Shown piece after piece: positions 10,666 to 42,050 of a stretch of 45,560 bases of DNA. This DNA comes from Faecalibacterium longum CLA-AA-H243. Lineage in GTDB: Bacteria; Bacillota; Clostridia; Oscillospirales; Ruminococcaceae. The notes beneath the pieces were generated by a model. The model ran no database searches. It was not told the origin of the DNA and saw only the letters and a list, made by a program, of their open reading frames with translations. The position numbers and the translations under genes are program-made. The stretch spans positions 1 through 45,560 of the forward strand of contig NZ_JAJEQG010000021.1 of NCBI RefSeq assembly GCF_020687245.1, read 5' to 3'. Position 1 is the first letter of the stretch; each line of letters starts with the position of its first letter.

Positions 10666-10682
10666 GTTTGGGGGTGATGCCT

Positions 10683-17133: not shown

Positions 17134-17152
17134 TTTGCAATAGGGGGTGATG

Positions 17153-25572: not shown

Positions 25573-25665
25573 CTCATCCTGAGATGACGGTACTCTGCCC
25601 TTGGGACATAAAGCAGATGAGTAAGACCATCATCTGTACGAAAATAGCTGCGGTTTGTTGCAGCT
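25573..25665 (-). promoter_or_regulatory. Inverted repeats between flavodiiron and thioredoxin genes
   Basis: AGCTGC (25646-25651) pairs with GCAGCT (25660-25665) directly at the flavodiiron stop and is followed on the minus strand by ATTTTC, a weak terminator. CAGATGA/TCATCTG (25614-25636) and TCATC/GATGA (25573-25586) follow upstream of the thioredoxin gene and could be an operator. No clear promoter boxes were seen. Confidence 0.35.
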
Positions 25666-26846
25666 TATTCTGCGCAGAGCTCAGCCACCAGAGCGTCCAT
25701 CTGCGCTTCGCTGGTTTGGTTCAATGCACCACGCAGAGACACTACCGTTTCGTAAAGGTGGATATCCTTCATCTCCTCCAATTTGGTGCGCATCAGCCGC
25801 GCGGCAGCAGGTGCCCAAGAGCCGTCTTCAATAAGGCCAACCCGGCGGTTTCGGAATCCCTTTGTCCGTAAATGTTCCAAAAACTCCCTCATGGGCGGAA
25901 ACAGTCCTCCGTCATAGGTGGCGCTGGCTAAAACCAACTTCCCGCAGTAGAACGCACTGGCAACAGCGTAGGAAAGATCTGTCACAGTGAGATCACATAT
26001 GTTGACCTGTACGCCTTTTTTCTCTAATTTACCCTTGAGGGTCTTCGCCGCATGGGCAGTATTTCCATGGATGGATGCGTGAGCGATCAGGATGCCCTCC
26101 GGTTCTTCCGGTTTCCATTGTGACCAGAGATCATAGAGCCGCAGGTACTCCCCCAAGTCTTCTGTGAGCATGGGGCCATGGAGCGGGCAGATCGTTTTGA
26201 TCTCCAGCGCGGAGATTTTTTTCAGCAGAGCCTGCACCTGTGCGCCATATTTCCCGATAATATTGTAATAATACCGTCGGGCCTGCGGCACCCAGGGGGC
26301 ACGGGCAGTCCGTTCCAGTGAGCCAAAGCGTCCGAAGGCATCCGCCGAGAACAGGATTTTTTCCGTTTCCTCATACGCCGTCATCACCTCCGGCCAGTGT
26401 ACCATCGGCGCCAGCAGAAAGCGCAGCCGGTGCAAACCCAAGGAAAGCGTATCTCTTTCGCCAACCTCCAGCATACGGTCTTCCGACAATGCACCTGTGC
26501 CGAAGAACTGCTTGATCAGGGTAAATGTTTTCGCGTTTCCCACGATCTTCATCTCCGGGTACTCTTGCGCCAGCCGCATGAGGCTGCCGGAATGATCCGG
26601 CTCCATGTGTGTAACCACAAGATAGTCGGGGCTGCGCCCCTCCAACACCCGCGCCACATTGGAAAGCCATTCTTCCGTTGCCCGTGCGTCCACGCTGTCC
26701 ATCACGGCGATCTTCTCATCCAGAATGACATAGGAGTTGTAGCTCACTCCCATAGGCTGGACGGAGTACTGGTTTTCAAAGAGTGCCAATGTGTTATCAT
26801 CCACCCCTACATAGCGGATGGCATCTGTTACCGTTTGGATAGCCAT
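25665..26846 (-). CDS. FprA-type flavodiiron protein (first copy)
   Basis: A 393-residue A-type flavoprotein. The N-terminal metallo-beta-lactamase-like domain has the diiron ligands H80-x-E82-x-D84 (THMEPDHSG), a His in PMVHWPEV, Asp in SADAFG and His in CPLHGP. The C-terminal flavodoxin domain starts ILIAHASIHGNTAHAA and binds FMN. Such proteins reduce O2 to water or NO to N2O with electrons from rubredoxin or similar donors. AATAGGAGG precedes the ATG. The paralogue at 31610-32821 has the same ligand set but is clearly diverged, which suggests different donors or substrates. Confidence 0.93.
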   Translation of the reverse strand: MAIQTVTDAIRYVGVDDNTLALFENQYSVQPMGVSYNSYVILDEKIAVMDSVDARATEEWLSNVARVLEGRSPDYLVVTHMEPDHSGSLMRLAQEYPEMKIVGNAKTFTLIKQFFGTGALSEDRMLEVGERDTLSLGLHRLRFLLAPMVHWPEVMTAYEETEKILFSADAFGRFGSLERTARAPWVPQARRYYYNIIGKYGAQVQALLKKISALEIKTICPLHGPMLTEDLGEYLRLYDLWSQWKPEEPEGILIAHASIHGNTAHAAKTLKGKLEKKGVQVNICDLTVTDLSYAVASAFYCGKLVLASATYDGGLFPPMREFLEHLRTKGFRNRRVGLIEDGSWAPAAARLMRTKLEEMKDIHLYETVVSLRGALNQTSEAQMDALVAELCAE

Positions 26847-26975: not shown

Positions 26976-27839
26976 TTACATGTGGTACACCGCAGCGGAG
27001 CGAAGTCCTTCCGGCAGGCCGTCGGGCGCAGCAGGTGAAAGTTTCCAGCGTACCTGCCCCGCCCACTGGGAGGCGACGGCGGAGAAGTGGAGCATGACAA
27101 TACCGAGATCCAATGCGGCATCCAAATTATCGGTGTAGGCATCCTCCTGCTGCACCAAATAGATGCTGTGATCCTGCACAAGGAAGCCATAGGGCTGACG
27201 GTTGAGATAGCTGGGGGAGAGCGAAGCGGCGTAGAAGGACTGCCAGAGCATATCGTCGTAGAAGTCTATCATCTCGTCAAGCCCAGACTGGTTGCTCCAG
27301 CTCCCCATGTGAACCAAATCGTGCACGCCCTTTTTGGGCGCGTAGTACTGCTGCTCGGCCCGCACATCGATCTGAGACATACTTAGGATATTCAGCCGCA
27401 GCTTTTTTGCGGTCTTTTCCCCGTAGCCAAAGGCAACGATTGCCGCCACCTCTAACGGGGTGGCGAGAGACAGTGCCTTTTTGATTTTGTCGCTGTCGGT
27501 GAAGGTCATCCAGCAGGTGTCAATGTCCAACTCAGTCAGCTTGAGGACGAGATCTTCCATCATGTAGCCGGCGTTGATGGCCGCATAGGAATGCGGGGCA
27601 GACATAAGGAGCAGGTAGTGCGGTGCTCCGATGAGAAATTGATTATAGCCCGCTGAGCTCTCCAGCGCCGGCTGTGCATCCTTGTCCAAGACGATCAACT
27701 CCGTTGCAATCTCCGGGACAAGACGGGGGCAGGTCTTTTCATAGTAGGATCGGAGCTGGCCGATAGCCTCGCTCGGAACTTCCTTTTCGCGGAATGCGTG
27801 AACGGATCTGCGATTTTGAATCATAGCGCTGTAATTCAT
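26976..27839 (-). CDS. Nitroreductase family flavoprotein
   Basis: A 287-residue protein with the nitroreductase opening MIQNRRSVHAFREKEVP (FMN phosphate contacts) and the internal YMMEDLVLKLTELDIDTCWM segment. The second half (QPYGFLVQD, DLGIVMLHFSAVA) looks like the duplicated or swapped half found in the larger TM1586-type members. It probably binds FMN and reduces a small acceptor with NAD(P)H; the substrate is unknown. It lies between nrdB and the flavodiiron gene in the same direction, with gaps of about 35 and 129 bases. Confidence 0.8.
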   Translation of the reverse strand: MNYSAMIQNRRSVHAFREKEVPSEAIGQLRSYYEKTCPRLVPEIATELIVLDKDAQPALESSAGYNQFLIGAPHYLLLMSAPHSYAAINAGYMMEDLVLKLTELDIDTCWMTFTDSDKIKKALSLATPLEVAAIVAFGYGEKTAKKLRLNILSMSQIDVRAEQQYYAPKKGVHDLVHMGSWSNQSGLDEMIDFYDDMLWQSFYAASLSPSYLNRQPYGFLVQDHSIYLVQQEDAYTDNLDAALDLGIVMLHFSAVASQWAGQVRWKLSPAAPDGLPEGLRSAAVYHM

Positions 27840-28927: not shown

Positions 28928-31444
28928 TTATGACGAGCAGCTTTCGCAGGCCTCGACCTCAAGGGCCTTGCTGCGGACATAGTAAATGGTCTTGACGCCG
29001 GCCCTCCACGCCTCCAAATACAGGCTGAGCACCTGACGCATGGAATAGTCGTTGGTGATATAGAGATTCATGCTCTGCGCCTGGTCAATATGTCTCTGGC
29101 GAAGGCCCGCGGCGCGTACCGACCAGCTTTGGTCGATCAGATGCGCCGCCTTATAGCACCACCATGTATCCATAGAAAGCTCCGGAGCAACGCGGGGCAG
29201 CATGCTGCCCTTTTTCTCCTCTAAAAAGAATTTCTTCATAATTGGATCTATGCCCGCCGACGTGCCGGAGATGATAGATGTGCTGGAGGTCGGTGCGACC
29301 GCCAGAAGATAGGCGTTGCGCATTCCCTGCACCGCCACCGTTTTCGCAAGCGCCCGCCACTTTTCGGAGGTATAACCCCGCTTTTCAAAATACGCGCCAG
29401 TCTGCCAGTCGCTGCCCTCAAAGAGCGCGTAACGCCCCTTTTCCCGTGCCAGTGCTGTGTCCGCCTTGACGGCGGCGTAGTTGATGAGCTCGAACACTGC
29501 GTCGGTGAAGGCAAGGTGCTCATCGCTCTCCCAGCGGATGCCGCGCTTTGCCAGCATGTGGTGGTAGCCGCTGACGCCCAGGCCGATGCTGCGGTACTTC
29601 TGATTGGAAAGCCGCGCGTATTCCAACGGGTAGAAGTTGAGGTCAATCACATTATCCAGTGCGCGGATGGCCGTTTCCACCGTGCGTTCCATATAGGCCT
29701 CGTCCTCCACCGGCAGATTACCGAGAGACAGACTCGCCAGGTTGCAGACCACAAACTCACCTGGGCGTGTGGCCGTCACCACAATTGTGTCGCCGTTCTC
29801 CGTGTGCACCTCAGTGCTGATGTGCTCGATGGGTGCCATGTTCTGCGCGATCTCCGTACAGAGATTGGAGCAATAAATCATTCCCGTGTGGCCGTTTGGG
29901 TTCATATGATTTACACTGTCGCGATTGAAAGCGAAGGGTGTGCCGGTCTCCACTGCCGAGCGAAGCACCAGCCGCACGATGTCCTTGACGGTGACGCTGC
30001 GCTTTTCGATGCGCGGGTCATTGACGCAGTCCAGATACCGCTTCTCCCATTCTGTACCCCAGTAATCCTCCAGTGCGTAGCCCTTGACCGTGAGGATCTC
30101 ATGCGGACACATGAGATGCCACGGCGCGTCTATGTTCTCCTCCGCCAGTCGCCAGAAGAGATCCGGATAGCACACGGCGGGAAACACATCATGTGCCTTC
30201 ATGCGGTCGTCGCCGTTGTTGGTGCGCAGTTGAAGGAATTCCGGCAGATCCCGGTGCCATGCGTCTAAGTAAACCGCCACAGCGCCCTGCCGCATCCCCA
30301 ACTGATCCACCGCCACGGCGGTGTCGTTGACCAGCCGGATCCAGCGGATAACACCGCCCGCCGCCCCTTGAAAGCCGCGGATGGTGCTGCCTGCAGCGCG
30401 CACCTTACCGAAGTACATCCCCATTCCACCGCCGAATTTAGAGACCTTTGCGAAGTTGTCCAGCGAGCGGTAGATGCCGTCCAGACTGTCCGGCACAGTG
30501 TCCACAAAGCAGCTTGAAAGCTGATGGTAGGGCTTTCGTGCGTTGGACATGGTAGGTGTCGCCATTGTGACCTCCATACGGCTGAGCATATCGTAAAAGC
30601 GTTTTACCCACCCCATGCGGTCAGAGCCTTCGTTCATAGCAAGATGCAGCGCGATACCCAAAAACATCTCCTGCGGTGTTTCCAGCGGCACGCGGCTGCG
30701 TGACTGGATCACATAGCGTTTGAGCAGCAGGTCAAGGCCGGAGTAGGTGAACAGCTCGTCCCGTTCCGGGCAGAGAAAGTCCTCCGCCATGGCAATCTCC
30801 TCGTGGGTATAGTGGGCAAGGATATAGTCACCGTAGAGTCCCTTATCCGTCAGATAGCGAAGCTTGCCATAGAGGTCGCAGACGCCGCGCCCCTCCCATT
30901 CCTGTGCGTTGCGACAGCGAAAGGAGTGGTTCAGAAGCCGCGCCGCGATGAACTCCCACTTGGGTGCCTCTGCCGTAGTCAGCTCTACCGCCGCCTTGGT
31001 CAGTGCCTCAGCCCGCTCATCCTCCGTCATGCCCAGGCGACAGAAACTCTCAAACTTCATTTGAAGCGCCGCGAGGGAGTAGACTTCCTCGGTAAAATCC
31101 ATCTGGATGCGGCGCAGCACCTCGTCAAGCGAGTCATCCCCCACCGTCCGCGCGATGGTATGCCGGACACGGCGCAGCGCAGACCGCTTTTCGCGGTAGA
31201 GGATGTACGCCTTGGCCACCTCATAGTGTCCGCGCTCCATGAGCGTTCGCTCCACCTCGTCCTGCACACGTTCCACGGTGAGCGGCACTGTGACGGAGAG
31301 ATTGTCGAGAACGGTGGCGAGGATCTCATCCATCTCTCTGCTCCCGATCTCCCTGCCCTGTCCGTCAAACGCCTTTTTCATGGCGTTGAAAATTTTCTCC
31401 TGTTGAAAGGGAACAGACTCCCCGTTTCGTTTTCTGATCTCCAT
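28928..31444 (-). CDS. nrdA: Ribonucleotide reductase class I, alpha subunit
   Basis: An 838-residue catalytic subunit that converts ribonucleotides to deoxyribonucleotides. An ATP-cone occupies about residues 1-90 (MEIRKRNGESVPFQQEKIFNAMKKAF), giving control by ATP/dATP. The active-site Cys residues are seen in LSSCFVD, SNLCTEI and VVCNLASLSLG, and the C-terminus ends CESCSS, the swinging Cys pair re-reduced by thioredoxin or glutaredoxin. The ATG at 31444 is preferred (GAGAGG just upstream); a GTG at 31471 has a poorer binding site. nrdB follows after 11 bases. The thioredoxins of this island are plausible reductants. Confidence 0.93.
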   Translation of the reverse strand: MEIRKRNGESVPFQQEKIFNAMKKAFDGQGREIGSREMDEILATVLDNLSVTVPLTVERVQDEVERTLMERGHYEVAKAYILYREKRSALRRVRHTIARTVGDDSLDEVLRRIQMDFTEEVYSLAALQMKFESFCRLGMTEDERAEALTKAAVELTTAEAPKWEFIAARLLNHSFRCRNAQEWEGRGVCDLYGKLRYLTDKGLYGDYILAHYTHEEIAMAEDFLCPERDELFTYSGLDLLLKRYVIQSRSRVPLETPQEMFLGIALHLAMNEGSDRMGWVKRFYDMLSRMEVTMATPTMSNARKPYHQLSSCFVDTVPDSLDGIYRSLDNFAKVSKFGGGMGMYFGKVRAAGSTIRGFQGAAGGVIRWIRLVNDTAVAVDQLGMRQGAVAVYLDAWHRDLPEFLQLRTNNGDDRMKAHDVFPAVCYPDLFWRLAEENIDAPWHLMCPHEILTVKGYALEDYWGTEWEKRYLDCVNDPRIEKRSVTVKDIVRLVLRSAVETGTPFAFNRDSVNHMNPNGHTGMIYCSNLCTEIAQNMAPIEHISTEVHTENGDTIVVTATRPGEFVVCNLASLSLGNLPVEDEAYMERTVETAIRALDNVIDLNFYPLEYARLSNQKYRSIGLGVSGYHHMLAKRGIRWESDEHLAFTDAVFELINYAAVKADTALAREKGRYALFEGSDWQTGAYFEKRGYTSEKWRALAKTVAVQGMRNAYLLAVAPTSSTSIISGTSAGIDPIMKKFFLEEKKGSMLPRVAPELSMDTWWCYKAAHLIDQSWSVRAAGLRQRHIDQAQSMNLYITNDYSMRQVLSLYLEAWRAGVKTIYYVRSKALEVEACESCSS

Positions 31445-31494
31445 TTCGATCCTCTCATCTTCTCCGGTCACTTCTCATGTCCTTTTGAGCAAAG

Positions 31495-31609: not shown

Positions 31610-32821
31610 TTACTTCATAGATTCCAGAATGGCGTCCGCCAGTGCTTCCAGCTCAGTGCGCTTGTCCGTGCCCATGGACGAGGCGAGGCTGAGCCGCTCG
31701 TTGAGCACCGTCATGTTCTTAAGTTCATTGTTGACGAATTTCTGCATGAGGTCACCGGACTTCACCGCCCATGAGCCGTTTTCAATGATGGCAAAGGTGC
31801 GATTTTGCAGATTCAGTGCCTTCATATCCATGAGGAAGTCATGCATGGCGGGGTAGATGCCGAGGTTGTAGGTCACAGAGGCCAGGACAATGTGACTGTA
31901 CTTAAACGCCTCGGAGATCAGCTGGGAGACATGAGTGGAGGACACATCGTACATCGCCACCTTGCTCATGCCCTTATCGCAGAGCGACGTCGCCAGCGCC
32001 TGCGCCGCGTTCTCCGTGTTGCCATACATAGAGGCGTAGACGATGAGCACGCCCTGGGTCTCAGGGGCATAGCGGCTCCATGTGTCGTATTTTTCGATGA
32101 ACCAGCCCAGATCCTTGCGCCACACGGGGCCGTGGAGCGGGCAGATGTACTTGATCTGATCCAAAACGCCGCTGGCCTTTTTCAGCAGGAGCTGGATGTG
32201 GGGGCCGTACTTGCCCACGATGTTGGTGAGGTAGCGGCGGGCGTCGTCCAGCCAGTCCCGCTCGAAGTCCACCTCGTCGGCGAACAGCTTGCCGTCCAGC
32301 GCGCCGAAGGTGCCGAAGGCGTCGGCGGAAAAGAGGACGCCGTCGGTGACGTCGAGGGTCACCATGGCCTCCGGCCAGTGAACCATAGGCGCGCCCACAA
32401 AGGTGACGGTGTGCTTGCCGAAGGAGAAGGTATCGCCCTCCTTCACCTCGATGCACTCATGTCCGTCCACATGGAAGCCGAACTGCCGCATGAGCATGAA
32501 TGCCTTCTCGTTGGAGATCAGTTTCACCTTGGGATGGCGCAGCAGGATCTCCTCGATGCAGGCGGCGTGATCCGGCTCCAGATGGTTGACCAGCAGGTAG
32601 TCCAGCTCGCGGCCATCCAGCACATACGCCAGATTTTCCAAAAGCTGGCGGCAGGCAGACCAGTCCACCGTGTCAAAGAGCACCGTCTTTTCATCCAGCA
32701 GGCAGTAGGCGTTGTAGGTTACGCCCCGGGGAATGGGAAAGCAGTTTTCAAACAGGGCCAGGCGATGGTCGTTGGCGCCCACCCAGTAGAGGTCGTTCGT
32801 TACTTTACGCACGCAATACAT
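31610..32821 (-). CDS. FprA-type flavodiiron protein (second copy, rubredoxin-fusion partner)
   Basis: A 403-residue A-type flavoprotein with the complete diiron set: H80-x-E82-x-D84 (NHLEPDHAA), PMVHWPEAM, SADAFG and CPLHGP. The C-terminal FMN domain starts VLIVYASMYGNTENAA. It reduces O2 to water or NO to N2O. It begins only 23 bases after the acyl-CoA dehydrogenase-EtfA-rubredoxin gene, with AAGGAGG before its ATG, so the two are co-translated from one message. The rubredoxin domain of that fusion is therefore its most likely electron donor. Similar in size to the copy at 25665 but clearly a separate paralogue. Confidence 0.94.
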   Translation of the reverse strand: MYCVRKVTNDLYWVGANDHRLALFENCFPIPRGVTYNAYCLLDEKTVLFDTVDWSACRQLLENLAYVLDGRELDYLLVNHLEPDHAACIEEILLRHPKVKLISNEKAFMLMRQFGFHVDGHECIEVKEGDTFSFGKHTVTFVGAPMVHWPEAMVTLDVTDGVLFSADAFGTFGALDGKLFADEVDFERDWLDDARRYLTNIVGKYGPHIQLLLKKASGVLDQIKYICPLHGPVWRKDLGWFIEKYDTWSRYAPETQGVLIVYASMYGNTENAAQALATSLCDKGMSKVAMYDVSSTHVSQLISEAFKYSHIVLASVTYNLGIYPAMHDFLMDMKALNLQNRTFAIIENGSWAVKSGDLMQKFVNNELKNMTVLNERLSLASSMGTDKRTELEALADAILESMK

Positions 32822-32844: not shown

Positions 32845-34758
32845 TCAAGCCTTTACAAATTGATCCTTCGTCTCCGCGCACTCGGGACACACCCACTCGG
32901 CGGGAAGCTGCTCAAAGAGCGTACCGGGCGCGATCTCGCCGTCCTCGTCGCCCAACTCCGGCACATACTCGTAGCCGCAGCCGCTGCAGACGTAGCGGTC
33001 GCCGATGGGGGCGGGCTTCGGCGGCGTGGGCCGCTTCATCTTTACCATGGGCGGCGCGGGCAGCTTTTCGCCGCTATCCAGCGCGGCAGTGAGCAGGGGC
33101 AGGATCTCCTCCACATCGCCCACGATGCCGTAGTCGCAGTTCTTGAAGATAGGCGCGTTACCGTTCTTATTGATGGCCACGATGGTGGAGGCGTCCTTGA
33201 TGCCCTTAAGGTGCTGGGATGCGCCGGAGATGCCGCAGGCGATGTACAGATTGCCGGTGAACTTCTGACCGGACATACCCACATAGCGGTTCAGCGGCAG
33301 ATATTTGAGAGTCTCCGCCACAGGGCGGGAAGAACCGATGGCCGCGCCGGCGGCCTTGGCCAGCGACTCTACCAGTTTCATGTTCTTTTTCTCCCCGATG
33401 CCCTTGCCCGCGGAGACCACCCGCTCCGCCTGCGGGATGGGCGTATCCATAGGGATGCCCACGGAGAAGTCGTGACCATCCTTCTTCAGCGCCGCCACAA
33501 GGTCGGCCACCTGCTGGGCAGCATCCCCCTCCCGGAAGATGGTCTTTTTGCGAATGCCGGTGATGGGCGCGGGTTTCTTGGCCGCCGAACGGCTCTCGCC
33601 GCCGGAGCTCTTGCCCAGCCTGCCCAACAGATGAGAGGCGATGACCACCCGCTGGATCTCGTTAGTGCCCTCGTAGAGGGTGGTGATCTTGGCGTCGCGG
33701 TAGGCCCGTTCCACCTCCATGCCCTTGAGGTAGCCGCTGCCGCCGTGGATCTGCAAGGCATCGTTGGTGACCTCCAGCGCGATGTCCGAGGCGTACATCT
33801 TCGCCATGGCGGACTCCATGCCGTAAGGCGCGTGCTGCTCCTTCAGCTCCGCCGCGGAGTAGATGAGGAACCGGGCGCAGCGCAGCTTGGTTGCCATATC
33901 TGCCAGCTTGAAGGCGATGCTCTGCTGGGCCGCGATGGGCTTGCCGAACTGGACGCGCTCCTTGGAATAGCTCAACGCGTGCTCAAACGCGCCCTGGGCG
34001 ATGCCCAGCGCCTGCGCGGCGATGCCGATGCGTCCGCCGTCCAGCGTGGACATGGCAATCTTGAAGCCCTCGCCCTCCTTGCCCAATAGGTTTTCCTTGG
34101 GAACCTTCACGTTGTTGAAGATCAGCTCCGCCGTGGAGGAGGAGCGAATACCCATCTTGTCATAGTGGTCGCCGAACTCAAAGCCCTTCCAGCCCTTCTC
34201 CACGATGAAAGCGGAGATGCCCCGGGTGCCGATGTCCGGCGTGGTGACGGCGAAAACCACATAGGTGTCCGCCTTAGGGGCGTTGGTAATGAAGATCTTG
34301 CCGCCGTTGAGGAGGTAGTAGTCCCCCTTATCCAGCGCCGTGGTCTCCGTGCCGCCGGCGTCGGATCCGGCGTTGGTCTCCGTAAGGCCGAAGGCGCCGA
34401 TCTTCTCGCCCTTGGCCAGCGGAACCAGATATTTCTTCTTCTGCTCCTCGGTGCCATAGGCGAAAATGGGCCATGAGCCGAGGGAGACGTGGGCGGAGAG
34501 GATTACGCCCGTGCCGCCGTCCACACGGGCCAGTTCCTCCACCGCGATGGCGTAGCTCAGGGCATCAAGACCGGCACCGCCGTACTCCTTGGGGTAGGGA
34601 ATGCCCATCCAGCCCAGCTTACCCAGCTTCTTGACAGCCTCCTCGGGAAACTCGTTGTTCTGATCCATTAAAAATGCGAGGGGCTTGATCTCCTCCTCCG
34701 CAAAACTCCGGATCTTCGCGCGCAGCTCTTCGTGCGCCGCCGTGGTTTGAAACAACAT
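32845..34758 (-). CDS. Acyl-CoA dehydrogenase - EtfA FAD domain - rubredoxin fusion
   Basis: A 637-residue three-part protein. Residues 1 to about 380 are a complete short-chain acyl-CoA dehydrogenase ([13 protein letters not shown] site; catalytic base E363 in LYEGTNEIQ). Residues about 430-565 match the FAD-binding C-terminal domain of ETF alpha ([46 protein letters not shown]). Residues about 586-637 are a rubredoxin with C591, C594, C624 and C627. No ETF beta gene is near. The layout makes a wired path acyl-CoA to FAD to FAD to iron, ending on the natural donor of flavodiiron proteins, whose gene follows by 23 bases. An rrf2 gene precedes it by 22 bases. The chain's function is inference. 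Confidence 0.93.
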
Positions 34759-34780: not shown

Positions 34781-35212
34781 TTACAGCTTGCTTGTATCTT
34801 GGGGATCGGATCCGCCGGTCAGCAGCCTGCGCAGGCTCACGGCACGGAACGCCTCGTCCTGCTTTTGCTGCAAGGCCGCCAGTTGACAGTGGATGGCGCA
34901 CCGCCCATGCTTGTCCTGCCAGCGGCATTTATATCCCGGCTCCATGCAGGCGCACAGGATGCCCCGCTCCCCCACGACCCCCATGAGATCGTAGAGGGAG
35001 GTCGCGTCCAGATCGCAGGACAGCGCGCAGCCGCCGAGAGCGCCGCGGCTCACCCTCACCAAATTGCCGGCGGAGAGCTTGCGCAGAATCTGGTAGGCAA
35101 ACTGATTGGGGATCAATTCCGTTTCCGACATCTCGGCCACCGAATGCTTCTCCCCGTCCAGCAGCACCCGCAAAATGCGCAGCGCGTAGTCCGTCTCTTT
35201 GGTGATGATCAT
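34781..35212 (-). CDS. Rrf2 family transcriptional regulator
   Basis: A 143-residue winged-helix regulator (MIITKETDYALRILRVLLDG; recognition region PNQFAYQILRKLSAGNLVRVSRGALGGC). The C-terminal half has Cys87, Cys89, Cys96, Cys105 and Cys109. Rrf2 proteins such as IscR and NsrR hold an iron-sulfur cluster on three such Cys and sense iron-sulfur status, NO or oxygen; the spacing here is similar but not identical. The ATG at 35212 is preferred since AGAGGA lies eight bases before it. It heads the operon with the dehydrogenase fusion and flavodiiron protein, and a palindrome over its promoter suggests self-control. Confidence 0.9.
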   Translation of the reverse strand: MIITKETDYALRILRVLLDGEKHSVAEMSETELIPNQFAYQILRKLSAGNLVRVSRGALGGCALSCDLDATSLYDLMGVVGERGILCACMEPGYKCRWQDKHGRCAIHCQLAALQQKQDEAFRAVSLRRLLTGGSDPQDTSKL

Positions 35213-35247
35213 GCTCCACATCCTCTTTTCGCTTGCTTGTTAATACT

Positions 35248-35423: not shown

Positions 35424-35564
35424 ATGCCTGAAAACCAGAAAGCGGAGAAATTGGTTGGGGCTCGCAGGGGTCGCCCATCCAAGGCGGATGAGGCGATCCC
35501 TGGCAAGTCCAAGGCAAGCACCAAAGTGCGTGCTTTTCATTTTATATCCGACGCACTATGTTAA
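35424..35564 (+). CDS. Possible short gene remnant of unknown function
   Basis: A 46-residue frame (MPENQKAEKLVGARRGRPSKADEAIPGK...) resembles the basic, low-complexity N-terminus seen in some DNA-binding or mobilization proteins (RGRPSK). There is no clear ribosome binding site and it overlaps the alarmone synthetase gene by nine bases. It may be a fragment left by an earlier insertion. The rest of the 340-base gap contains only the rrf2 promoter. Confidence 0.2.
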   Translation: MPENQKAEKLVGARRGRPSKADEAIPGKSKASTKVRAFHFISDALC

Positions 35565-36227
35565 GATGTGCAGTAGATGTTCCATTTTTCTGTCCCATTC
35601 TCTGCTGGAATCGGCGCACTCTTTCAATTCAGTTTCGACTTCAGCATTTATCGGCAAGTTTTTCTTGTAGCGGATGGTATGCTCAAGGCTTGCCCAGAAG
35701 TCCATAGCGATTGTACGGAGTTGTATCTCCACTGGCACATGGATCTCTTTTTCCGCAAAGAATACCGGCAGCCGGATCGTCAGGTGCAGACTGCGATAGC
35801 CATTTGGCTTAGGGTGTGAAATATAATCTTTCTCCGTGATGATTTCAATGTCAGACTGATCTTTTAAGCACTTTGCCAAAAAGAACACATCCTCCTCGAA
35901 AGAGCAGATCACCCGCACACCGGCAATATCCATGATATTTGCCTGCATGGTCGGAAAATCCAGAGAAAGTCCGCGCTTCTGCATCTTATTCATAATGCTG
36001 GACGGCGACTTCAAGCGACTTTTCATACTTTCTATCGGATTGCGGTCATGCTGCAATGAAAACTCTTCGTTTAGAATTTCCAACCTGCTTTCCAGTGCTT
36101 TCAGCGCACATCGGTATTGCAGCATGACTTCCTGATACCTGCGATTTTCGCTTAAAAGGCGCTGGCACTGCAGATCATCTAAGCCTTTATCTGCCGCAAC
36201 CGTCAAGCCAAATAAATTTTCACTCAT
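35556..36227 (-). CDS. Small alarmone synthetase (RelA/SpoT domain, RelQ-like)
   Basis: A 223-residue single-domain (p)ppGpp synthetase. It shows the synthetase motifs SRLKSPSSIMNKMQKRG, the metal-binding IMDIAGVRVIC, the segment ITEKDYISHPKPNGYRSLHLTIRLPV and the Glu in VEIQLRTIAMDFWASLEH. No hydrolase, TGS or ACT domain is present, so it resembles YjbM/RelQ. It would make the alarmone that slows growth under stress. The ATG at 36227 overlaps the stop codon of the CoA-disulfide reductase gene (ATGA), which ties its translation to a redox enzyme. It is the last gene of the FTR-thioredoxin operon. Confidence 0.9.
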   Translation of the reverse strand: MSENLFGLTVAADKGLDDLQCQRLLSENRRYQEVMLQYRCALKALESRLEILNEEFSLQHDRNPIESMKSRLKSPSSIMNKMQKRGLSLDFPTMQANIMDIAGVRVICSFEEDVFFLAKCLKDQSDIEIITEKDYISHPKPNGYRSLHLTIRLPVFFAEKEIHVPVEIQLRTIAMDFWASLEHTIRYKKNLPINAEVETELKECADSSREWDRKMEHLLHILT

Positions 36228-37918
36228 AGTTTCTCCATTCCGCAGGGATAGGCGCTCCGCGCTGTCTGCTGCTCTTGTGTTACGACCTGATAAAAACTGT
36301 ATCCGCCGGAGAGATGGGAACAGCTGAAACCATACTGCGTCAAAAGCCGACAGGCCAGATAACTGCGAAGCCCAGTCTGGCAATTCACATAGATAGGCTT
36401 GTCCCGCTCTAACTCGTCCAAGTGCTCCCGCAGATCGTCCAGTGGAATATTGCGGAATCCATTCAAGTGCCCACGCCGATATTGGCCTTCCGTACGGACG
36501 TCCAGCAGCGTCGCACTGCCATCGCAGGGCAAGCCCTCAACATCATTCCAATGGAACTGCTGCACTTTCCCGCTCTCCAAATCCTCGATCATAAAACCGG
36601 CCATATTGACCGGATCCTTGGCAGAGGAATAGGGCGGCGCATAGGAAAGGTCAAGTTCCGTCAGTTCCAAAGCTTTCATTTTTGCGCGAATGGCCGTTGC
36701 CAGTACATCAATACGCTTGTCCACGCCCTCGCCGCCAACGATCTGCGCACCCAGCAGCCGCAGGCTTTCCTTTTCATACAGTACCTTCATTGCCATAGAC
36801 TGTGCGCCGGGGTAATAGGCAGCGTGGGATGCTGGGAAAAGCACGACTTTATCGTAAGCGATTTCTGCTGCCTGCGCCGCTTTTTCATTGATCCCCGTGG
36901 AGGCCGCTGTCAAGCCGAACAGTTTCAGAACAGACGAGCCCTGAGAGCCGTGAAAGTGGCTATTGCCGCCACAGATATTGTCAGCGGCAATGCGTCCCTG
37001 CTTGTTGGCGGGTCCCGCCAGCGAAATCAACGCTTTCTGCCCGGTTACAAAATGGGTGACCTCTACGGCATCGCCCACAGCATAGATGTCCGGCACGGAG
37101 GTTTCCATCCGTTCGTTGACAGCGATGCTGCCACGAATACCCAGCTCAAGTCCGGCCTCTTTTGCCAGATGGGTGTCCGGCGTGACGCCGATGGCCAGCA
37201 AAACCATATCCGAATGCAGCGGCTCACTACCCTCCAACAGGGTCAGCACGGAATCTCCGTCCTGCCGAAATCCGGTGACGGTTTCACCCAACCGCAGAGT
37301 CACGCCGTGTCTGCGCATTTCCGCATGGACAAAGCTCGCCATATCCGTATCCAGCGGCGCTAATAGCTGCTTTGGACGTTGGACGATGGTGACAGAAACG
37401 CCCATTTCTGTAAGGTTTTCCGCCATTTCCAGACCGATAAAGCCGCCGCCAGCCAAAACAGCGTTTTTCGGCTTCTGATCCTCTACAAAGTGCCTAATGC
37501 GGAGGGTATCCTCCACGGTGCGCAGCGTGAAAACACGCTCACTGCTGACGCCGGAAAGCGCAGGAACCGTCGGCTTTGCGCCGGGTGCGAGGAGCAGTTT
37601 GTCATAGGTTTCCGTATAGATCTTCCCGCTGTCCAGTGTGCGGACAGTGACGGTTTTCTCTGCGGGATTGATCGCAGTTACTTCCTGCCGTACCCGTACA
37701 TCAATGCGAAAGCGGTCCCAGAAGCTCTCCGGAGTTTGCAGTGTCAGTTCTTCTTGCTCCTTGATCACACCGCCCACATAATACGGCAGACCGCAGTTGG
37801 CATAGGACACATAGCCACTGCGCTCGATCATGATGATCTGGGCGTGTTCATCCAAACGGCGGATGCGGGCAGCGGCAGAAGCACCGCCCGCCACACCGCC
37901 TACGATCACAACTTTCAT
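36224..37918 (-). CDS. CoA-disulfide reductase with C-terminal rhodanese domain
   Basis: A 564-residue flavoprotein. The N-terminal two-thirds is a pyridine nucleotide-disulfide oxidoreductase of the CoA-disulfide reductase type: FAD motif GGVAGGASAAARIRR, single catalytic Cys42 in SYANCGLPYYVGG, NAD(P)H motif GGGFIGLEMAENL and the dimer domain. The last 100 residues are a rhodanese domain with its Cys in VNCQTGLRSYLACRLL. The fused form is known to act on CoA disulfides, persulfides or polysulfides. It overlaps the thioredoxin gene before it and the alarmone synthetase after it by four bases each. Role: thiol or sulfane-sulfur control during oxidative stress. Confidence 0.92.
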   Translation of the reverse strand: MKVVIVGGVAGGASAAARIRRLDEHAQIIMIERSGYVSYANCGLPYYVGGVIKEQEELTLQTPESFWDRFRIDVRVRQEVTAINPAEKTVTVRTLDSGKIYTETYDKLLLAPGAKPTVPALSGVSSERVFTLRTVEDTLRIRHFVEDQKPKNAVLAGGGFIGLEMAENLTEMGVSVTIVQRPKQLLAPLDTDMASFVHAEMRRHGVTLRLGETVTGFRQDGDSVLTLLEGSEPLHSDMVLLAIGVTPDTHLAKEAGLELGIRGSIAVNERMETSVPDIYAVGDAVEVTHFVTGQKALISLAGPANKQGRIAADNICGGNSHFHGSQGSSVLKLFGLTAASTGINEKAAQAAEIAYDKVVLFPASHAAYYPGAQSMAMKVLYEKESLRLLGAQIVGGEGVDKRIDVLATAIRAKMKALELTELDLSYAPPYSSAKDPVNMAGFMIEDLESGKVQQFHWNDVEGLPCDGSATLLDVRTEGQYRRGHLNGFRNIPLDDLREHLDELERDKPIYVNCQTGLRSYLACRLLTQYGFSCSHLSGGYSFYQVVTQEQQTARSAYPCGMEKL

Positions 37919-38235
37919 CTTGCGCCCTCCACCATTGCGGCAATCTCCGACTTAGGCCGATAGCCGACCGATTTGGTAATGGCCTTTCCATCCTTGAATA
38001 CGACCAGCATCGGGATGCTGGATACTTGAAAACGCATTGCCAGCTCCATCTGCTCATCCACGTTGACCTTGCCCACCTTGAGCGTACCGCTTTTTTCTTC
38101 GGCAAGCTCATGCAGTACGGGAGAGAGCATTTTGCACGGTCCGCACCAGTCCGCATAGAAATCCAGCAGGACGGGCTTGTCGGAATGCAGTATCTCATTT
38201 TCAAAATTCGCAGCAGTAATTTTCAGTTCAGCCAT
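37915..38235 (-). CDS. trxA: Thioredoxin
   Basis: A 106-residue thioredoxin with the standard active site W-C31-G-P-C34 (DFYADWCGPCKMLSP) and the cis-Pro loop SSIPMLVVFKDG. It reduces protein disulfides in the cytoplasm. It lies in one operon with an FTR-like protein and ferredoxin upstream, which suggests reduction from ferredoxin, and overlaps the CoA-disulfide reductase start by four bases. The start is the ATG at 38235; GAAAGG-like sequence lies upstream. Confidence 0.93.
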   Translation of the reverse strand: MAELKITAANFENEILHSDKPVLLDFYADWCGPCKMLSPVLHELAEEKSGTLKVGKVNVDEQMELAMRFQVSSIPMLVVFKDGKAITKSVGYRPKSEIAAMVEGAR

Positions 38236-38263: not shown

Positions 38264-38839
38264 TTATTCTTTGTTTTTCAGCTTGCAAATACTCTGCGTC
38301 ATGGTTCCCATCGGGCAAAACGCACACCATGTGCGGGGCATGTAGAGCACCATAACGATCAGACCCAGCAGCAGAGAGGTCAGCATGAGGCTATAAAAGC
38401 CAAAGCTGAACTGCGCCACCCAGTCAGTGACCGTACCGGCTGTATAAGTCCAGCTCCACGGCACACGGAATGTCCAGAACAGCTTAATGGCCTCCCGCAG
38501 GGACGTAGCACCAGCAGCGACCAGATAGGTCTGGAACACCATGTTGCCGAACATCGTCAGGAAAAAGAGCAAAAAGGCATAACGGAACCACTTGGAGGAC
38601 ATCCAGCGGGGCGTGGGCTTGCAGCGGGAGCATTTAAGGTCTGTCCCCAGCTTGCTGAACAGTTGACCCCGTCCACAGAGGTGGTTGCAAAAGAATTTGT
38701 TCCCGCCAAAGATGGCTAAAAGCAGCGGCAGAAGAAAATCGATCATACCCAGCCACGCGAACAGGATATTGAAAAAGCCCAGTGCAAAATAGATGATGGC
38801 ATATACCCACAGGTAATCGTACCAATGCTTTGCTTTCAT
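38264..38839 (-). CDS. Membrane 4Fe-4S protein (NapH/CcoG-like)
   Basis: A 191-residue protein with four or five membrane helices (about residues 10-30, 32-45, 85-105, 145-170) and Cys clusters facing the cytoplasm: FFCNHLCGRGQLF, CSRCKP and WCAFCPMGTMTQSIC. This resembles the NapH/NosR/CcoG group of membrane iron-sulfur proteins that pass electrons across or along the membrane, but it is shorter and lacks the C-terminal ferredoxin domain. That domain is encoded separately by the preceding gene, which overlaps it by four bases. It may link a membrane electron source to the soluble ferredoxin; this is inference. Confidence 0.8.
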   Translation of the reverse strand: MKAKHWYDYLWVYAIIYFALGFFNILFAWLGMIDFLLPLLLAIFGGNKFFCNHLCGRGQLFSKLGTDLKCSRCKPTPRWMSSKWFRYAFLLFFLTMFGNMVFQTYLVAAGATSLREAIKLFWTFRVPWSWTYTAGTVTDWVAQFSFGFYSLMLTSLLLGLIVMVLYMPRTWCAFCPMGTMTQSICKLKNKE

Positions 38840-39378: not shown

Positions 39379-39753
39379 TTACGCTTTCCACAGACTGTGG
39401 AGGTTGCAGTAGGCGTAGACCGCCTCGACCTCATCGCCCTCGCAGAGAGCGAAGCAGACCTCCGGCTTTTCGCCGGGATGCAGTTCCTTACGCTGATTGC
39501 CCTGCTTGGTCTGGAGAGATACCCATTCGATGTAGTGCTCCGGCAGCATGGGGTGCTCTACGGAGCCGACCTTGACATGGACGATGCCGTTTTCCACCGT
39601 CCAGACAGGAACGTGCTTCTCCACGGCGGCGTCGGTGGTGCCGGGAACGATCTCGCTCATCGGCTCACCGCAGCAGACGACAGGGACGCCTACGTCCTTA
39701 ACTTTGGCAATGATGTTACCGCAATGCTTGCAAATGTAAAACTTCTGCTCCAT
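39379..39753 (-). CDS. dfx: Desulfoferrodoxin (superoxide reductase)
   Basis: A 124-residue superoxide reductase with both domains: an N-terminal desulforedoxin domain with Cys8, Cys11, Cys27 and Cys28 (ICKHCG, VVCCGEPM) and a C-terminal catalytic domain whose Fe ligands lie in EKHVPVW, VGSVEHPMLPEHYIEW and AYCNLHSLW (four His and one Cys). It reduces superoxide to hydrogen peroxide without making O2. It follows rubrerythrin by 21 bases in one operon, so the peroxide formed can be removed by its neighbour. Normal length. Confidence 0.94.
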   Translation of the reverse strand: MEQKFYICKHCGNIIAKVKDVGVPVVCCGEPMSEIVPGTTDAAVEKHVPVWTVENGIVHVKVGSVEHPMLPEHYIEWVSLQTKQGNQRKELHPGEKPEVCFALCEGDEVEAVYAYCNLHSLWKA

Positions 39754-39774: not shown

Positions 39775-40317
39775 TTAATAGTTTTCTGCGTGAATTTCAA
39801 AATAGCTCTGGGGATGGTTGCAGGTGGGGCAAACCTCCGGAGCCTTCTCGCCCACGACGATGTGACCGCAGTTGCGGCACTCCCACACCTTGACCTCGCT
39901 CTTGGCGAAGACCTCCGCCATCTCCACATTGTGCAGCAGGGCACGGTAGCGCTCCTCGTGGTGCTTTTCAATGGCGGCGACCAGGCGGAAACGCTGGGCC
40001 AGCGCATGGAAACCTTCCTCATCGGCTGTTTTGGCAAAGCCGTCGTACATATCCGTCCACTCGTAGTTCTCACCCTCAGCGGCGGAGAGAAGGTTTTCTG
40101 CGGTGTCGCCAATGCCGTTCAGTTCTTTGAACCACAGCTTGGCGTGTTCCTTCTCATTATCAGCGGTTTTGAGGAACAGTGCCGCGATCTGCTCAAAGCC
40201 TTCCTTCTTGGCCTTGGATGCAAAATAGGTGTACTTGTTGCGTGCCTCGGACTCACCGGCAAAGGCAGCCATCAGGTTTTTTTCGGTTTGAGTTCCTGCG
40301 TATTTCGTTTCTTTCAT
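39775..40317 (-). CDS. rbr: Rubrerythrin
   Basis: A 180-residue peroxidase that reduces hydrogen peroxide to water. The N-terminal ferritin-like domain supplies the diiron ligands ([42 protein letters not shown]) and the C-terminal rubredoxin domain has C-R-N-C and C-P-T-C. It starts the rbr-dfx operon. A candidate Crp/Fnr site and a -10 box lie just upstream. Rubredoxin domains elsewhere in the island are possible electron donors. Confidence 0.95.
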
Positions 40318-40396: not shown

Positions 40397-41053
40397 TTAT
40401 TTTAGACGATTTAGTCTGTTCTTATCCCGCAGCGTGATTGCACCACGCTTCAGCTCCACCAGTCCGTCCTCCGAGAAGCTTTTGAGCATCCGTGCCACTG
40501 CCTCCCGTGCCGAGCTGATGTGCTGGGCGATCTGCTCATGGGTCATACGTATCGTGTCGGAGCCGGTACGTTCCGCTTCGGCAAAGAGAAATTCTGCCAG
40601 CCGCTGATCCAGCCCCTTGAACATGATCTGCTGCATCGCCCACATCACATCAGAAAACCGTTTCGTTGCCAGTTCATAGAGAAAACAGCGGACATGGAGA
40701 TTTTTCTCCTTGAGTGCAGCAATGACATTTGCAGGGATAATCAGAACGTCCGTATCCATTCCGGCCGTCATTTGCGTATCAAAGGTGATCTGACTGATCA
40801 CGCAGGAGGCGGAAAGCACGCATAGCTCGCCCGGATATAGGCGGAACAGCGTTACCTCCCGCCCCTCATCAGAGAGAAGATAAGTGCGGATCTCGCCGGA
40901 AAGAATAAACAGCATTCCGAGACATTCATTGTCGCTGCTGTGAACGAACGCACCCTTTTTATAATGACGGACAAAGGCACTTCGGCGTAGTGTGTCCATT
41001 TCGCGTTCGGTCAAGGATGACCAGAACGGAAGTTGTGTCAGTGTGCGTTCCAT
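40397..41053 (-). CDS. Crp/Fnr family transcriptional regulator
   Basis: A 218-residue regulator with an N-terminal cyclic-nucleotide-binding-type beta barrel (KKGAFVHSSDNECLGMLFILSGEIRTYLLSDEGREVTLFRLYPGELCVLSASCVI) and a C-terminal winged helix (MTHEQIAQHISSAREAVARMLKSFSEDGLVELKRGAITL). There is no N-terminal Fnr-type Cys cluster; Cys residues lie in the barrel region. The ATG at 41053 starts one base after the stop of the NifX-like gene, so translation is probably coupled. It resembles regulators that sense oxygen, NO or redox in anaerobes. The three GTGACGNNGTYAC sites nearby are its likely targets. Confidence 0.9.
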   Translation of the reverse strand: MERTLTQLPFWSSLTEREMDTLRRSAFVRHYKKGAFVHSSDNECLGMLFILSGEIRTYLLSDEGREVTLFRLYPGELCVLSASCVISQITFDTQMTAGMDTDVLIIPANVIAALKEKNLHVRCFLYELATKRFSDVMWAMQQIMFKGLDQRLAEFLFAEAERTGSDTIRMTHEQIAQHISSAREAVARMLKSFSEDGLVELKRGAITLRDKNRLNRLK

Positions 41054-41054
41054 A

Positions 41055-41834
41055 TCAATGGCAGCTATGCTTGCCGCAGCCGTGGTCACCGCAGGAGTGA
41101 CCAGCCTCGCCGTGCTCATGATCATGGTGGTCACAGTGAACATTGGGATCGTAGCCCAGATTTCCGTTGAGCAATGCGCTCACCGCAGCATCAGCGTCCC
41201 CGCTGACACCGCCGTAGAGCTTGATGCCCGCTTCGGCCAGAGCTGCCTGCGCACCGCCGCCGATGCCTCCGCAAATCAAAGTGTCCACGCCGTTCTGCAT
41301 CAGGAAGCCTGCCAGTGCGCCGTGACCGCTGCCGTTGGTGTCAACGACTTTCGCATGAGTGATTTTGCCGTCCACAGCTTCATAAAGCTTGAACTGCTCG
41401 GTGTGACCGAAATGCTGAAAGATTTGACCGTTTTCATAGGTAACTGCAATTTTCATAATGGAATCTCCTTTGCAAGTTTTGCCTAATTTTTCCATGTTGG
41501 TTCTCTGCATCCGGCAGCAACGGCCGCAGTGAGCTGCCTCCTGTCCTCCGCAAATGCGGTAGTTTCCCCCGGTGATGTGCAGCGGTTTCCCGTGGACAAG
41601 ACACGCTGCAATCTTGCGCCGTGTGCCTTCGTAAATCTCCTGCACGGTAGAGCGTGAAATGTCCATCTGCGCGGCACACTGCTCGTGGGTTTGCTGCTCC
41701 AAGTCAACCAGCCGAATGACCTCGTATTCGTCCAGCGTCAGCAGGATCGGCTCGGTATTCTCGCACCCGTTGGGACAGAATGTATCGACCTGTGATACGC
41801 CACAAATTTGACGGCACCGTGGCGGTCTTGGCAT
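41055..41834 (-). CDS. DUF134 - NifX/NifB-like (iron-molybdenum cofactor-binding) fusion
   Basis: A 259-residue frame. Residues 1 to about 115 are a DUF134 protein (MPRPPRCRQICGV, LTLDEYEVIRLVDLEQQTHEQCAAQM, helix-turn-helix ISRSTVQEIYEGTRRKIA). Residues about 127-259 are a NifX/NafY-like domain (KIAVTYENGQIFQHFGHTEQFKLYE, ICGGIGGGAQAALAEAGIKLYGG) ending in a His/Cys-rich tail that should bind metal. An internal ATG with AAAGGAG before it (about 41457) could also give the second domain alone. No nitrogenase is present; such proteins in anaerobes are linked to iron-sulfur or metal-cluster handling. It is followed by the Crp/Fnr gene after one base. Confidence 0.85.
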   Translation of the reverse strand: MPRPPRCRQICGVSQVDTFCPNGCENTEPILLTLDEYEVIRLVDLEQQTHEQCAAQMDISRSTVQEIYEGTRRKIAACLVHGKPLHITGGNYRICGGQEAAHCGRCCRMQRTNMEKLGKTCKGDSIMKIAVTYENGQIFQHFGHTEQFKLYEAVDGKITHAKVVDTNGSGHGALAGFLMQNGVDTLICGGIGGGAQAALAEAGIKLYGGVSGDADAAVSALLNGNLGYDPNVHCDHHDHEHGEAGHSCGDHGCGKHSCH

Positions 41835-41869
41835 GGGAGCTTTCTTCCCTTTGTATTCGGTATATTCCG

Positions 41870-41898
41870 ATTGTAGCACTTTGAGCAGAAAAAAGCAA
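41870..41898 (-). promoter_or_regulatory. Promoter of the DUF134-NifX and Crp/Fnr operon
   Basis: On the minus strand TTGCTT (41893-41898) and TACAAT (41870-41875) are 17 bases apart, about 36 bases before the ATG. The 275-base stretch from 41835 to the next plus-strand gene at 42111 holds only the two divergent promoters. Confidence 0.6.
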
Positions 41899-42050
41899 TT
41901 TTTTTCAAAAGCTGCTACATTTTCCGTCCTCATATGTGTGCCGGCTGATATTCGGAGTCGAATGCTACATGTGAGCTTTGTTCGTAATGCCCACCGAGCA
42001 TGACCGTAGCGGCAGTCACAGCATCCACATGAAAGCGTTCCCGGTAATGC

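What the first reader, a model, noticed from the sequence alone, without database searches (positions are those of the whole stretch)
32845..34758. Acyl-CoA dehydrogenase, ETF FAD domain and rubredoxin in one polypeptide, next to a flavodiiron protein
One intact 637-residue frame carries a complete acyl-CoA dehydrogenase (catalytic E363), the FAD domain of ETF alpha and a rubredoxin with all four Cys. The flavodiiron gene starts 23 bases later. Established: dehydrogenases pass electrons to ETF, and rubredoxin is the usual donor to flavodiiron O2/NO reductases. Inference: this is a self-contained wire from an acyl-CoA (perhaps butyryl-CoA) to oxygen or NO reduction, needing neither NADH nor ETF beta. 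It would be a fatty-acid-fuelled oxygen scavenger.
Basis: partly seen in the sequence, partly recalled or inferred. Interest (0 to 1): 0.85.

Follow-up and report, generated by a model that had tools for sequence, protein, structure and literature searches.

The report
Butyryl-CoA oxygen reductase on mobile island
A gut butyrate producer carries a fused enzyme and a partner that probably remove oxygen using a butyrate-pathway intermediate, a system already described in another bacterium, but here the genes sit in an oxygen-defence island that appears to have jumped recently between species.

Summary
Window 32845-34758 (-) encodes one intact 637-aa chain: acyl-CoA dehydrogenase (Glu363), the FAD-binding domain of EtfA, and a four-Cys rubredoxin. 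A flavodiiron protein (FDP) gene follows after 23 bases. This is butyryl-CoA oxygen oxidoreductase (BOOR: BCR + FDP), reported in Fusobacterium nucleatum by Bystrom & Wolthers 2024 (known to me through citing papers). Fusobacterium vincentii orthologues are 76% and 66% identical. A 2026 preprint places BOOR beside Rrf2, RNR, thioredoxin and rubrerythrin in Faecalibacterium prausnitzii. NO reduction is not supported: the Fusobacterium complex reportedly lacks it.

New, as far as my searches show: the host is a Faecalibacterium, and the genes lie in a horizontally moving oxygen-defence island. BCR is 99.4-100% identical in 8 of 31 genus genomes; 21 show no fusion. At four-fold sites BCR differs by 0.9-2.7%, core butyrate genes by 12-33%, in the same genome pairs. 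In one single-contig genome all 16 island genes tested sit in a 42.3-kb element at a tRNA-Leu with its own integrase; other carriers keep 8 to 16. Twelve kilobases recur in Oscillibacter at 92-97% DNA identity.

The parts
32845..34758 (-). BCR: acyl-CoA dehydrogenase + EtfA FAD domain + rubredoxin, 637 aa
   Evidence: 75.9% identical to the F. vincentii orthologue
31610..32821 (-). FDP1 (two-domain flavodiiron protein), partner of BCR, all seven expected ligand positions present
   Evidence: 65.5% identical to the F. vincentii orthologue
34781..35221 (-). Rrf2-family regulator directly upstream of BCR
   Evidence: a relative of this Rrf2 lies upstream on the same strand in 45 of 73 homologous loci with over 600 nt of upstream DNA, a lower bound because diverged Rrf2 proteins may be missed; association described in PMC13404960
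27874..28980 (-). class I-type ribonucleotide reductase small subunit (NrdB)
28928..31471 (-). ribonucleotide reductase large subunit (NrdA)
   Evidence: translation; no profile scan was run on this ORF; identified by inspection and adjacency to NrdB
26976..27839 (-). nitroreductase-family flavoprotein (TM1586 type)
25665..26846 (-). FDP2, second flavodiiron protein, about 41% identical to FDP1, ligand positions H80 E82 D84 H85 H150 D169 H223
24236..25165 (-). thioredoxin reductase-like flavoprotein
   Evidence: Pyr_redox_2; 71% identical to the annotated trxB of L175
23158..23841 (-). ferritin
35556..36383 (-). RelA/SpoT-domain protein (small alarmone synthetase-like)
36224..37918 (-). CoA-disulfide-reductase-like flavoprotein with C-terminal rhodanese domain
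   Evidence: TIGR03385 509 bits, below its 578.8 cut-off
37915..38235 (-). thioredoxin
38264..38839 (-). probable membrane 4Fe-4S protein (Fer4_5)
   Evidence: 'membrane' by inspection of the sequence
39379..39753 (-). desulfoferrodoxin (superoxide reductase)
   Evidence: TIGR00320 114.6 bits, below its 146.9 cut-off
39775..40317 (-). rubrerythrin
   Evidence: NF045767 above cut-off
40397..41143 (-). Crp/Fnr-family regulator
41055..42056 (-). DUF134 / dinitrogenase-cofactor-domain protein at the right edge of the island
10485..12254 (+). MobA/MobL mobilisation protein in the flanking mobile-element DNA
17147..18538 (+). relaxase (MobA/VirD2-like)
2250..4274 (+). large serine recombinase
43104..44609 (+). 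UmuC/DinB-type polymerase on the other side of the island

Best explanation
[quoted passage not shown] The dehydrogenase domain takes two electrons from butyryl-CoA, giving crotonyl-CoA. They pass to the FAD of the EtfA-type domain, then one at a time through the rubredoxin iron to the FMN and diiron site of FDP1, where O2 becomes water. Crotonyl-CoA returns to butyryl-CoA through the cell's Bcd-EtfAB, so O2 is removed without spending NADH directly. The pair is part of an oxygen-defence island (two FDPs, ribonucleotide reductase, thioredoxin reductase and, in most but not all carriers, superoxide reductase and rubrerythrin) that has recently spread between Faecalibacterium species and to or from Oscillibacter, most likely on mobile elements. 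Shown here: domains, active-site residues, gene linkage, orthology, recent spread, and the carrier element in one genome. Shown elsewhere for Fusobacterium: the coupled reaction. Inferred here: substrate, electron path and O2 specificity of this particular pair.
For: Domain architecture and residues. Full-length F. vincentii orthologues, BCR 75.9% and FDP 65.5% identical, genes 27 nt apart. Coupled butyryl-CoA/O2 activity reported for F. nucleatum (passages in PMC12288474, PMC12630350, PMC13404960). Among 204 matching solved sequences (60 listed) the best is 5ol2_C, labelled acyl-CoA dehydrogenase, and butyryl-CoA dehydrogenases 9w60 and 1buc are fourth and fifth. Own genome holds thl-, crt-, hbd-, bcd-, etfB- and etfA-like frames in a row that would make butyryl-CoA (L048, named by inspection) and NQR2/RnfD/RnfE-family genes. 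FDP follows in 76 of 76 informative loci among the best 80 of 449 relatives, 74 within 300 nt. Recent spread: 99% DNA identity over about 8.4 kb in 7 of 7 other close carriers against 90-94% and, for the largest matching pieces, 80-90% at two chromosomal controls; four-fold-site differences 0.9-2.7% (BCR) against 12-33% (core genes).
Against: No activity was measured on this pair. One same-genus relative, G008 (69% identical, 67% by tblastn), has the fusion with no FDP beside it, so linkage is not absolute. Acyl chain-length preference cannot be read from sequence alone; NCBIfam's best dehydrogenase match, acryloyl-CoA reductase, is below its cut-off (492 against 640 bits). For mobility: the tRNA-Leu element was defined in one genome only, its end repeats are similar rather than identical, no empty site was resolved, and island content varies from 8 to 16 of the 16 genes tested among the seven other close carriers, three of them seen only on shorter fetched stretches.
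Confidence: 0.9

Rival explanations
1. Rubredoxin hub: the rubredoxin domain of BCR feeds not only FDP1 but also FDP2, rubrerythrin and the superoxide reductase of the island, so butyryl-CoA pays for removal of O2, H2O2 and superoxide alike.
For: In each of the 10 fusion-bearing genus genomes the fusion is the only PF00301 rubredoxin match. FDP2, desulfoferrodoxin and rubrerythrin lie within about 8 kb of BCR in the window. Rubredoxin is a known donor to these enzymes in other anaerobes (established knowledge; for rubrerythrin also stated in PMC12288474).
Against: 11 of 31 genus genomes have no PF00301 match, yet all 31 have an ODP/FDP-family match and 10 of those 11 a desulfoferrodoxin match, one of the ten weak, so related enzymes run without a canonical rubredoxin. 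Carrier G030 lacks the island's rubrerythrin and superoxide reductase in the 120 kb fetched and has a shortened FDP2. A tethered rubredoxin inside an alpha4-beta4 complex may not reach other partners.
Confidence: 0.2
2. NO reductase: the pair reduces NO rather than, or as well as, O2.
For: FDPs as a class reduce O2 and/or NO (PMC12288474). NCBIfam's best FDP1 matches are NO-reductase flavorubredoxins, far below cut-off (206.6 against 635 bits). The preprint's BOOR-linked Rrf2 regulator is NsrR-like (PMC13404960).
Against: The Fusobacterium complex reportedly had no NO reductase activity (PMC12288474).
Confidence: 0.08
3. Reverse flow: the fusion is an enoyl-CoA reductase that takes electrons from reduced rubredoxin.
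For: The nearest NCBIfam dehydrogenase model is acryloyl-CoA reductase (below cut-off).
Against: The Fusobacterium orthologue oxidises butyryl-CoA when coupled to the FDP. No other PF00301 rubredoxin was found in the genome. A search for a rubredoxin reductase was not made.
Confidence: 0.04
4. Another acyl-CoA (propionyl-, isovaleryl- or glutaryl-type) is the physiological fuel.
For: Acyl-CoA dehydrogenases overlap in sequence, and several specificities score well, all below their cut-offs.
Against: Butyryl-CoA dehydrogenases are among the closest solved relatives, and the host has the butyrate-pathway genes (by inspection).
Confidence: 0.1

Closest known systems
Butyryl-CoA oxygen oxidoreductase (BOOR; BCR FN1424 + FDP FN1423) of Fusobacterium nucleatum (Bystrom & Wolthers 2024, Biochemistry 63:2352; not read, known through citing papers)
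   Same: Domain order Bcd - EtfA FAD domain - rubredoxin; paired FDP gene; F. vincentii orthologues 75.9%/65.5% identical
   Different: Here an Rrf2 gene precedes it and it lies in a larger oxygen-defence island flanked by mobile-element genes; the surroundings in Fusobacterium were not compared
Rrf2 (UniRef50_C0FN14)-BOOR neighbourhoods in gut Clostridia, including F. prausnitzii (preprint PMC13404960, July 2026; passages and one section seen)
   Same: Rrf2 - BCR - FDP with ribonucleotide reductase, thioredoxin and rubrerythrin nearby, as in this window
   Different: The preprint's main text has no hit for 'mobile'; its case-study section mentions horizontal transfer only for OxyR/PerR regulators of other gut bacteria
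Bifurcating Bcd-EtfAB (Clostridium kluyveri type)
   Same: Homologous dehydrogenase and EtfA FAD domain
   Different: The chain contains no EtfB and only the C-terminal part of EtfA, so no bifurcating FAD is expected
Multidomain NADH:O2 flavodiiron proteins (C. difficile, Syntrophomonas wolfei; titles seen in the reference list of PMC12288474; details recalled)
   Same: An FDP reducing O2 with electrons brought by fused redox domains
   Different: Here the electron source is an acyl-CoA, and the rubredoxin is fused to the donor dehydrogenase rather than to the FDP

Membership tests
BOOR (BCR + FDP) | Single chain Bcd - EtfA C-terminal FAD domain - rubredoxin | tested here: met
   (best EtfA model aligned at positions 194-311 of 313 only)
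BOOR (BCR + FDP) | Gene pair with a two-domain (class A type) FDP | tested here: met
   23-nt gap, same strand; ODP + flavodoxin domains; co-transcription not tested
BOOR (BCR + FDP) | Full-length homology to Fusobacterium BCR and FDP | tested here: met
   75.9% over 638 and 65.5% over 403 aligned positions against F. vincentii SB055; FN1424/FN1423 themselves were not available
BOOR (BCR + FDP) | Catalytic Glu, rubredoxin Cys4 and FDP diiron ligands intact | tested here: met
   (ligand roles recalled)
BOOR (BCR + FDP) | Butyryl-CoA-dependent O2 reduction, no NO reduction, alpha4-beta4 complex | not testable with these tools
   reported for F. nucleatum only (PMC12288474)
Integrative mobile element (tRNA-Leu type) carrying the island | Element bounded by att repeats at a tRNA 3' end | tested here: met
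   G011 only: tRNA-Leu 3'-end-like sequence at both ends of element A and at the intact tRNA-Leu(CAA) beyond element B; repeats similar, not identical
Integrative mobile element (tRNA-Leu type) carrying the island | Own site-specific recombinase | tested here: met
   tyrosine integrase L069:1288-2784, at the right end of element A
Integrative mobile element (tRNA-Leu type) carrying the island | Own relaxase or conjugation genes | tested here: inconclusive
   Window contig has MobA/MobL and relaxase genes. In G011 a MobA/MobL was found in neighbouring element B; element A was not scanned exhaustively
Integrative mobile element (tRNA-Leu type) carrying the island | Empty site in a relative | tested here: inconclusive
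   the flanking query hit repeats in many places; no clean empty site resolved

The most novel reading that the evidence does not exclude
The window shows a transmissible oxygen-tolerance module of gut Clostridia. A constant core (Rrf2, BCR, FDP1, FDP2, NrdAB, nitroreductase, thioredoxin reductase) with variable extras such as superoxide reductase and rubrerythrin moves between species and genera on integrating elements and plasmids. On arrival it plugs the recipient's butyrate pathway into O2 removal. Because the fused rubredoxin is the only canonical one found in each carrier, it may also serve the second FDP, rubrerythrin and superoxide reductase. Recent horizontal spread itself I put at about 0.93; the full hub version is what is scored here. 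I lowered it from 0.25 to 0.2 on checking, because one carrier lacks the island's rubrerythrin and superoxide reductase.
Probability: 0.2. Interest if true: 0.7.

Novelty: new member of a known kind. Interest (0 to 1): 0.42.

Why it matters
Faecalibacterium is called extremely oxygen-sensitive, and its decline is linked with inflammatory bowel disease (passages and abstract of PMC6295017). If oxygen handling is a mobile trait present in about a third of its species (10 of 31 genomes, one per species), tolerance would follow element carriage rather than species identity. That can be tested by comparing carriers with non-carriers, and it bears on choosing strains for live products. The enzyme itself is known.

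Tried and rejected
Rfam scan of the window at gathering thresholds: no match. tRNA scan of the window: none. BCR in phage records: 50 records matched, none with one place covering 80% of the query, best listed covering 59%. IMG/VR scan: 69 pattern matches, none confirmed. So phage carriage is not supported. Empty insertion site by searching G011's left flank: uninformative because the flank holds repeats. G026's etfA comparison (42.9% at four-fold sites over 609 nt) was dropped from the quoted range because only a split partial locus was available; its etfB was 'na'. Chance fusion or a frame artefact was rejected: the architecture recurs. Transfer 'between families', which I had written in a draft, was dropped: NCBI places Faecalibacterium, Oscillibacter and Vescimonas in one family, Oscillospiraceae. 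A constant 16-gene island was dropped too: the close carriers G011, G015, G009, G025, G003, G026 and G030 hold 16, 16, 15, 12, 12, 10 and 8 of the 16 genes in the stretches fetched. Structure prediction of domain contacts was not possible.

Literature. Searches were (12 of 19 papers listed). Seen: abstract, section list and named passages of PMC12288474; named passages and one section of PMC13404960; named passages of PMC12630350, PMC6295017 and PMC9674144. Other papers were seen only as search listings. Bystrom & Wolthers 2024 was not read; it is cited through the first three papers named. That mobility of this island is unreported rests only on these searches of an open-licence library.

Full report
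What is there. The frame 32845-34758 (-) is intact and encodes 637 residues. Pfam finds an acyl-CoA dehydrogenase (6-377 in three pieces), the EtfA FAD-binding domain (441-521) and a rubredoxin (588-634), all far above cut-off. The best NCBIfam EtfA model aligns only at its C-terminal third (positions 194-311 of 313), and an alignment with the genome's own EtfA leaves most of that protein's N-terminal part without a counterpart in the fusion. Only the FAD-carrying domain was kept. FDP1 (31610-32821, -) has both lactamase-like and flavodoxin domains and all seven expected ligand positions (roles recalled).

What it is. Papers describe this pair in Fusobacterium nucleatum as butyryl-CoA oxygen oxidoreductase: BCR (Bcd - EtfA C-terminus - rubredoxin) and an FDP form an alpha4-beta4 complex that oxidises butyryl-CoA and reduces O2 to water, without NO reductase activity (review PMC12288474, passages; also PMC12630350, passages). 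The primary paper, Bystrom & Wolthers 2024, was not read. I could compare directly with F. vincentii SB055 (a 2.1-Mb record held among the plasmids): BCR is 75.9% and FDP 65.5% identical over full length, 27 nt apart. A July 2026 preprint (PMC13404960) reports an Rrf2 regulator beside BOOR in gut Clostridia, with RNR, thioredoxin and rubrerythrin in F. prausnitzii neighbourhoods. That is the arrangement of this window.

How general. Of 449 relatives found in named genomes the best 80 were kept. Among these an FDP lies downstream on the same strand within 300 nt in 74, at 474 and 568 nt in two more, and in four the contig ends too soon to tell. A relative of the window's Rrf2 lies within 600 nt upstream in 45 of 73 loci with enough DNA; diverged Rrf2 genes may be missed. 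The set is biased towards close relatives. Within the genus, 9 of 10 fusions have the FDP beside them; the exception is G008, whose fusion is 67-69% identical and has other genes around it.

Mechanism. The most likely path is butyryl-CoA to dehydrogenase FAD, to the FAD of the EtfA domain, to rubredoxin Fe, to FDP1 FMN, to diiron, to O2. Every step is inferred for this protein. The coupled reaction is reported for the Fusobacterium orthologue. The host has a butyrate gene row (L048: thl-, crt-, hbd-, bcd-, etfB-, etfA-like frames, named by inspection) and NQR2/RnfD/RnfE-family genes (31 of 31 genus genomes), so the recycling scheme of the review could operate here.

The surroundings lead to something less well described. 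The host genus is Faecalibacterium: the contigs of two same-genus relatives have the lengths of named Faecalibacterium records, 51,454 (F. hattorii) and 25,448 (uncultured Faecalibacterium sp.). The stretch 22-42 kb is dense with oxygen-defence genes: ferritin, thioredoxin reductase, FDP2, nitroreductase, NrdB/NrdA, FDP1, BCR, Rrf2, a RelA/SpoT-domain protein, a CoA-disulfide-reductase-like protein, thioredoxin, a 4Fe-4S protein, superoxide reductase, rubrerythrin and a Crp/Fnr regulator (NrdA by inspection). To the left lie mobilisation and relaxase genes, a serine recombinase and a BanI-like restriction-modification pair; to the right a UmuC-type polymerase.

Evidence of recent spread. The fusion was found in 10 of 31 genus genomes (9 of 22 that are at least 90% complete and at most 5% contaminated); some of the 21 without it are incomplete. 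In eight, own included, it is 99.4-100% identical; the other two are about 85% and 67%. Window 26900-35300 matches at 99% over at least 8.39 kb in 7 of 7 other close carriers. Two chromosomal controls are lower in the same genomes: 90-94% for the hbd-bcd-etf region (over 4.1-4.5 kb; 2.2 kb in G026) and, for the largest matching piece of a second locus, 90% in G011 and 80-81% in the other six. At four-fold degenerate sites BCR differs from the window's copy by 0.9-2.7% and FDP1 by 1.0-3.1%, while hbd, bcd, etfB and etfA differ by 12.4-32.6%; the G026 etfA (partial, 42.9%) and etfB (not available) values were set aside. The lowest control values are all from G011, the nearest relative. Island segments are arranged differently in different genomes.

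Island content varies. Of 16 island genes tested, G011 and G015 hold 16, G009 15, G025 and G003 12, G026 10 and G030 8 at 85% identity or more, in the stretches fetched (120 kb for four genomes; 27-51 kb for G003, G015 and G026). The eight in all seven are BCR, FDP1, FDP2 (shortened in G030), Rrf2, NrdA, NrdB, nitroreductase and thioredoxin reductase.

Reach beyond the genus. Oscillibacter sp. MSJ-31 (L082) shares 12.4 kb of the island at 92-97% DNA identity, with 7.4% difference at four-fold sites in BCR, less than any of the core-gene values between Faecalibacterium species above. NCBI places both genera in Oscillospiraceae. The annotated plasmid pMM35_02 of Vescimonas fastidiosa carries Rrf2-BCR-FDP-nitroreductase-FDP2 in the window's order, without nrdAB between, then trxB, trx and ferritin, with BCR 92.8% and FDP1 92.1% identical. 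At four-fold sites it is 28-33% away, so it is an older branch.

A carrier element. In single-contig genome G011 the island lies within chromosome positions 2055573 to about 2097843. The left end, an internal junction and the far end of a second, tandem element each carry sequence like the 3' end of a tRNA-Leu; the intact tRNA-Leu(CAA) stands at the far end. Element A, 42.3 kb, ends in a tyrosine integrase, and all 16 island genes tested lie inside it; none of them was found in element B. The repeats are similar, not identical, and no clean empty site was resolved. The window is a whole contig of 45,560 bases, so its own insertion site is unknown.

A bolder reading. In each of the 10 carriers the fusion is the only PF00301 rubredoxin match, so it might serve FDP2, rubrerythrin and superoxide reductase as well. 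Against this, 11 of 31 genus genomes have no PF00301 match, although all 31 have ODP/FDP-family matches and 10 of those 11 a desulfoferrodoxin match, one of them weak; and carrier G030 lacks the island's rubrerythrin and superoxide reductase.

Verdict. This is a new member of a known kind. The added value is the evidence that the oxygen-defence island moves horizontally; I found no report of that in searches, which cover open-licence papers only and of which I opened few.

Noticed in passing
window 20385-21776 (+): FMN-binding-domain protein (463 aa) whose coding DNA contains two diverged direct repeats of about 0.4 kb (about 75-76% identical, seen); at the left edge of the island and shared by several carriers.
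   Followed up: no
window 5985-8314 (+): BanI-like restriction enzyme with a C-5 cytosine methyltransferase, followed by an IrrE/M78 peptidase regulator and a PIN-like ORF (last name by inspection).
   Followed up: no
window 35556-36383 (-): RelA/SpoT-domain protein inside the oxygen island, its frame overlapping the end of the CoA-disulfide-reductase-like gene; absent from the fetched stretches of 4 of 7 other close carriers. A possible alarmone link to redox stress.
   Followed up: no
L047:4067-6136 (G008): A diverged same-genus fusion (67-69% identical to the window's) without a neighbouring flavodiiron gene; its electron acceptor is unclear.
   Followed up: partly
L080:15116-15195 and L023:573: Two tandem integrative elements at one tRNA-Leu in G011, each ending in a similar tyrosine integrase (about 90% DNA identity); the one farther from the tRNA carries the oxygen island.
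   Followed up: partly
L175 (Vescimonas fastidiosa plasmid pMM35_02): Plasmid with a diverged copy of the oxygen island between dockerin-domain proteins and a gene annotated as an AcrIIA9-family Cas9 inhibitor.
   Followed up: no
G030:C1:833828-834256: FDP2 appears shortened in one carrier (open frame 261 aa) while BCR and FDP1 stay intact.
   Followed up: no
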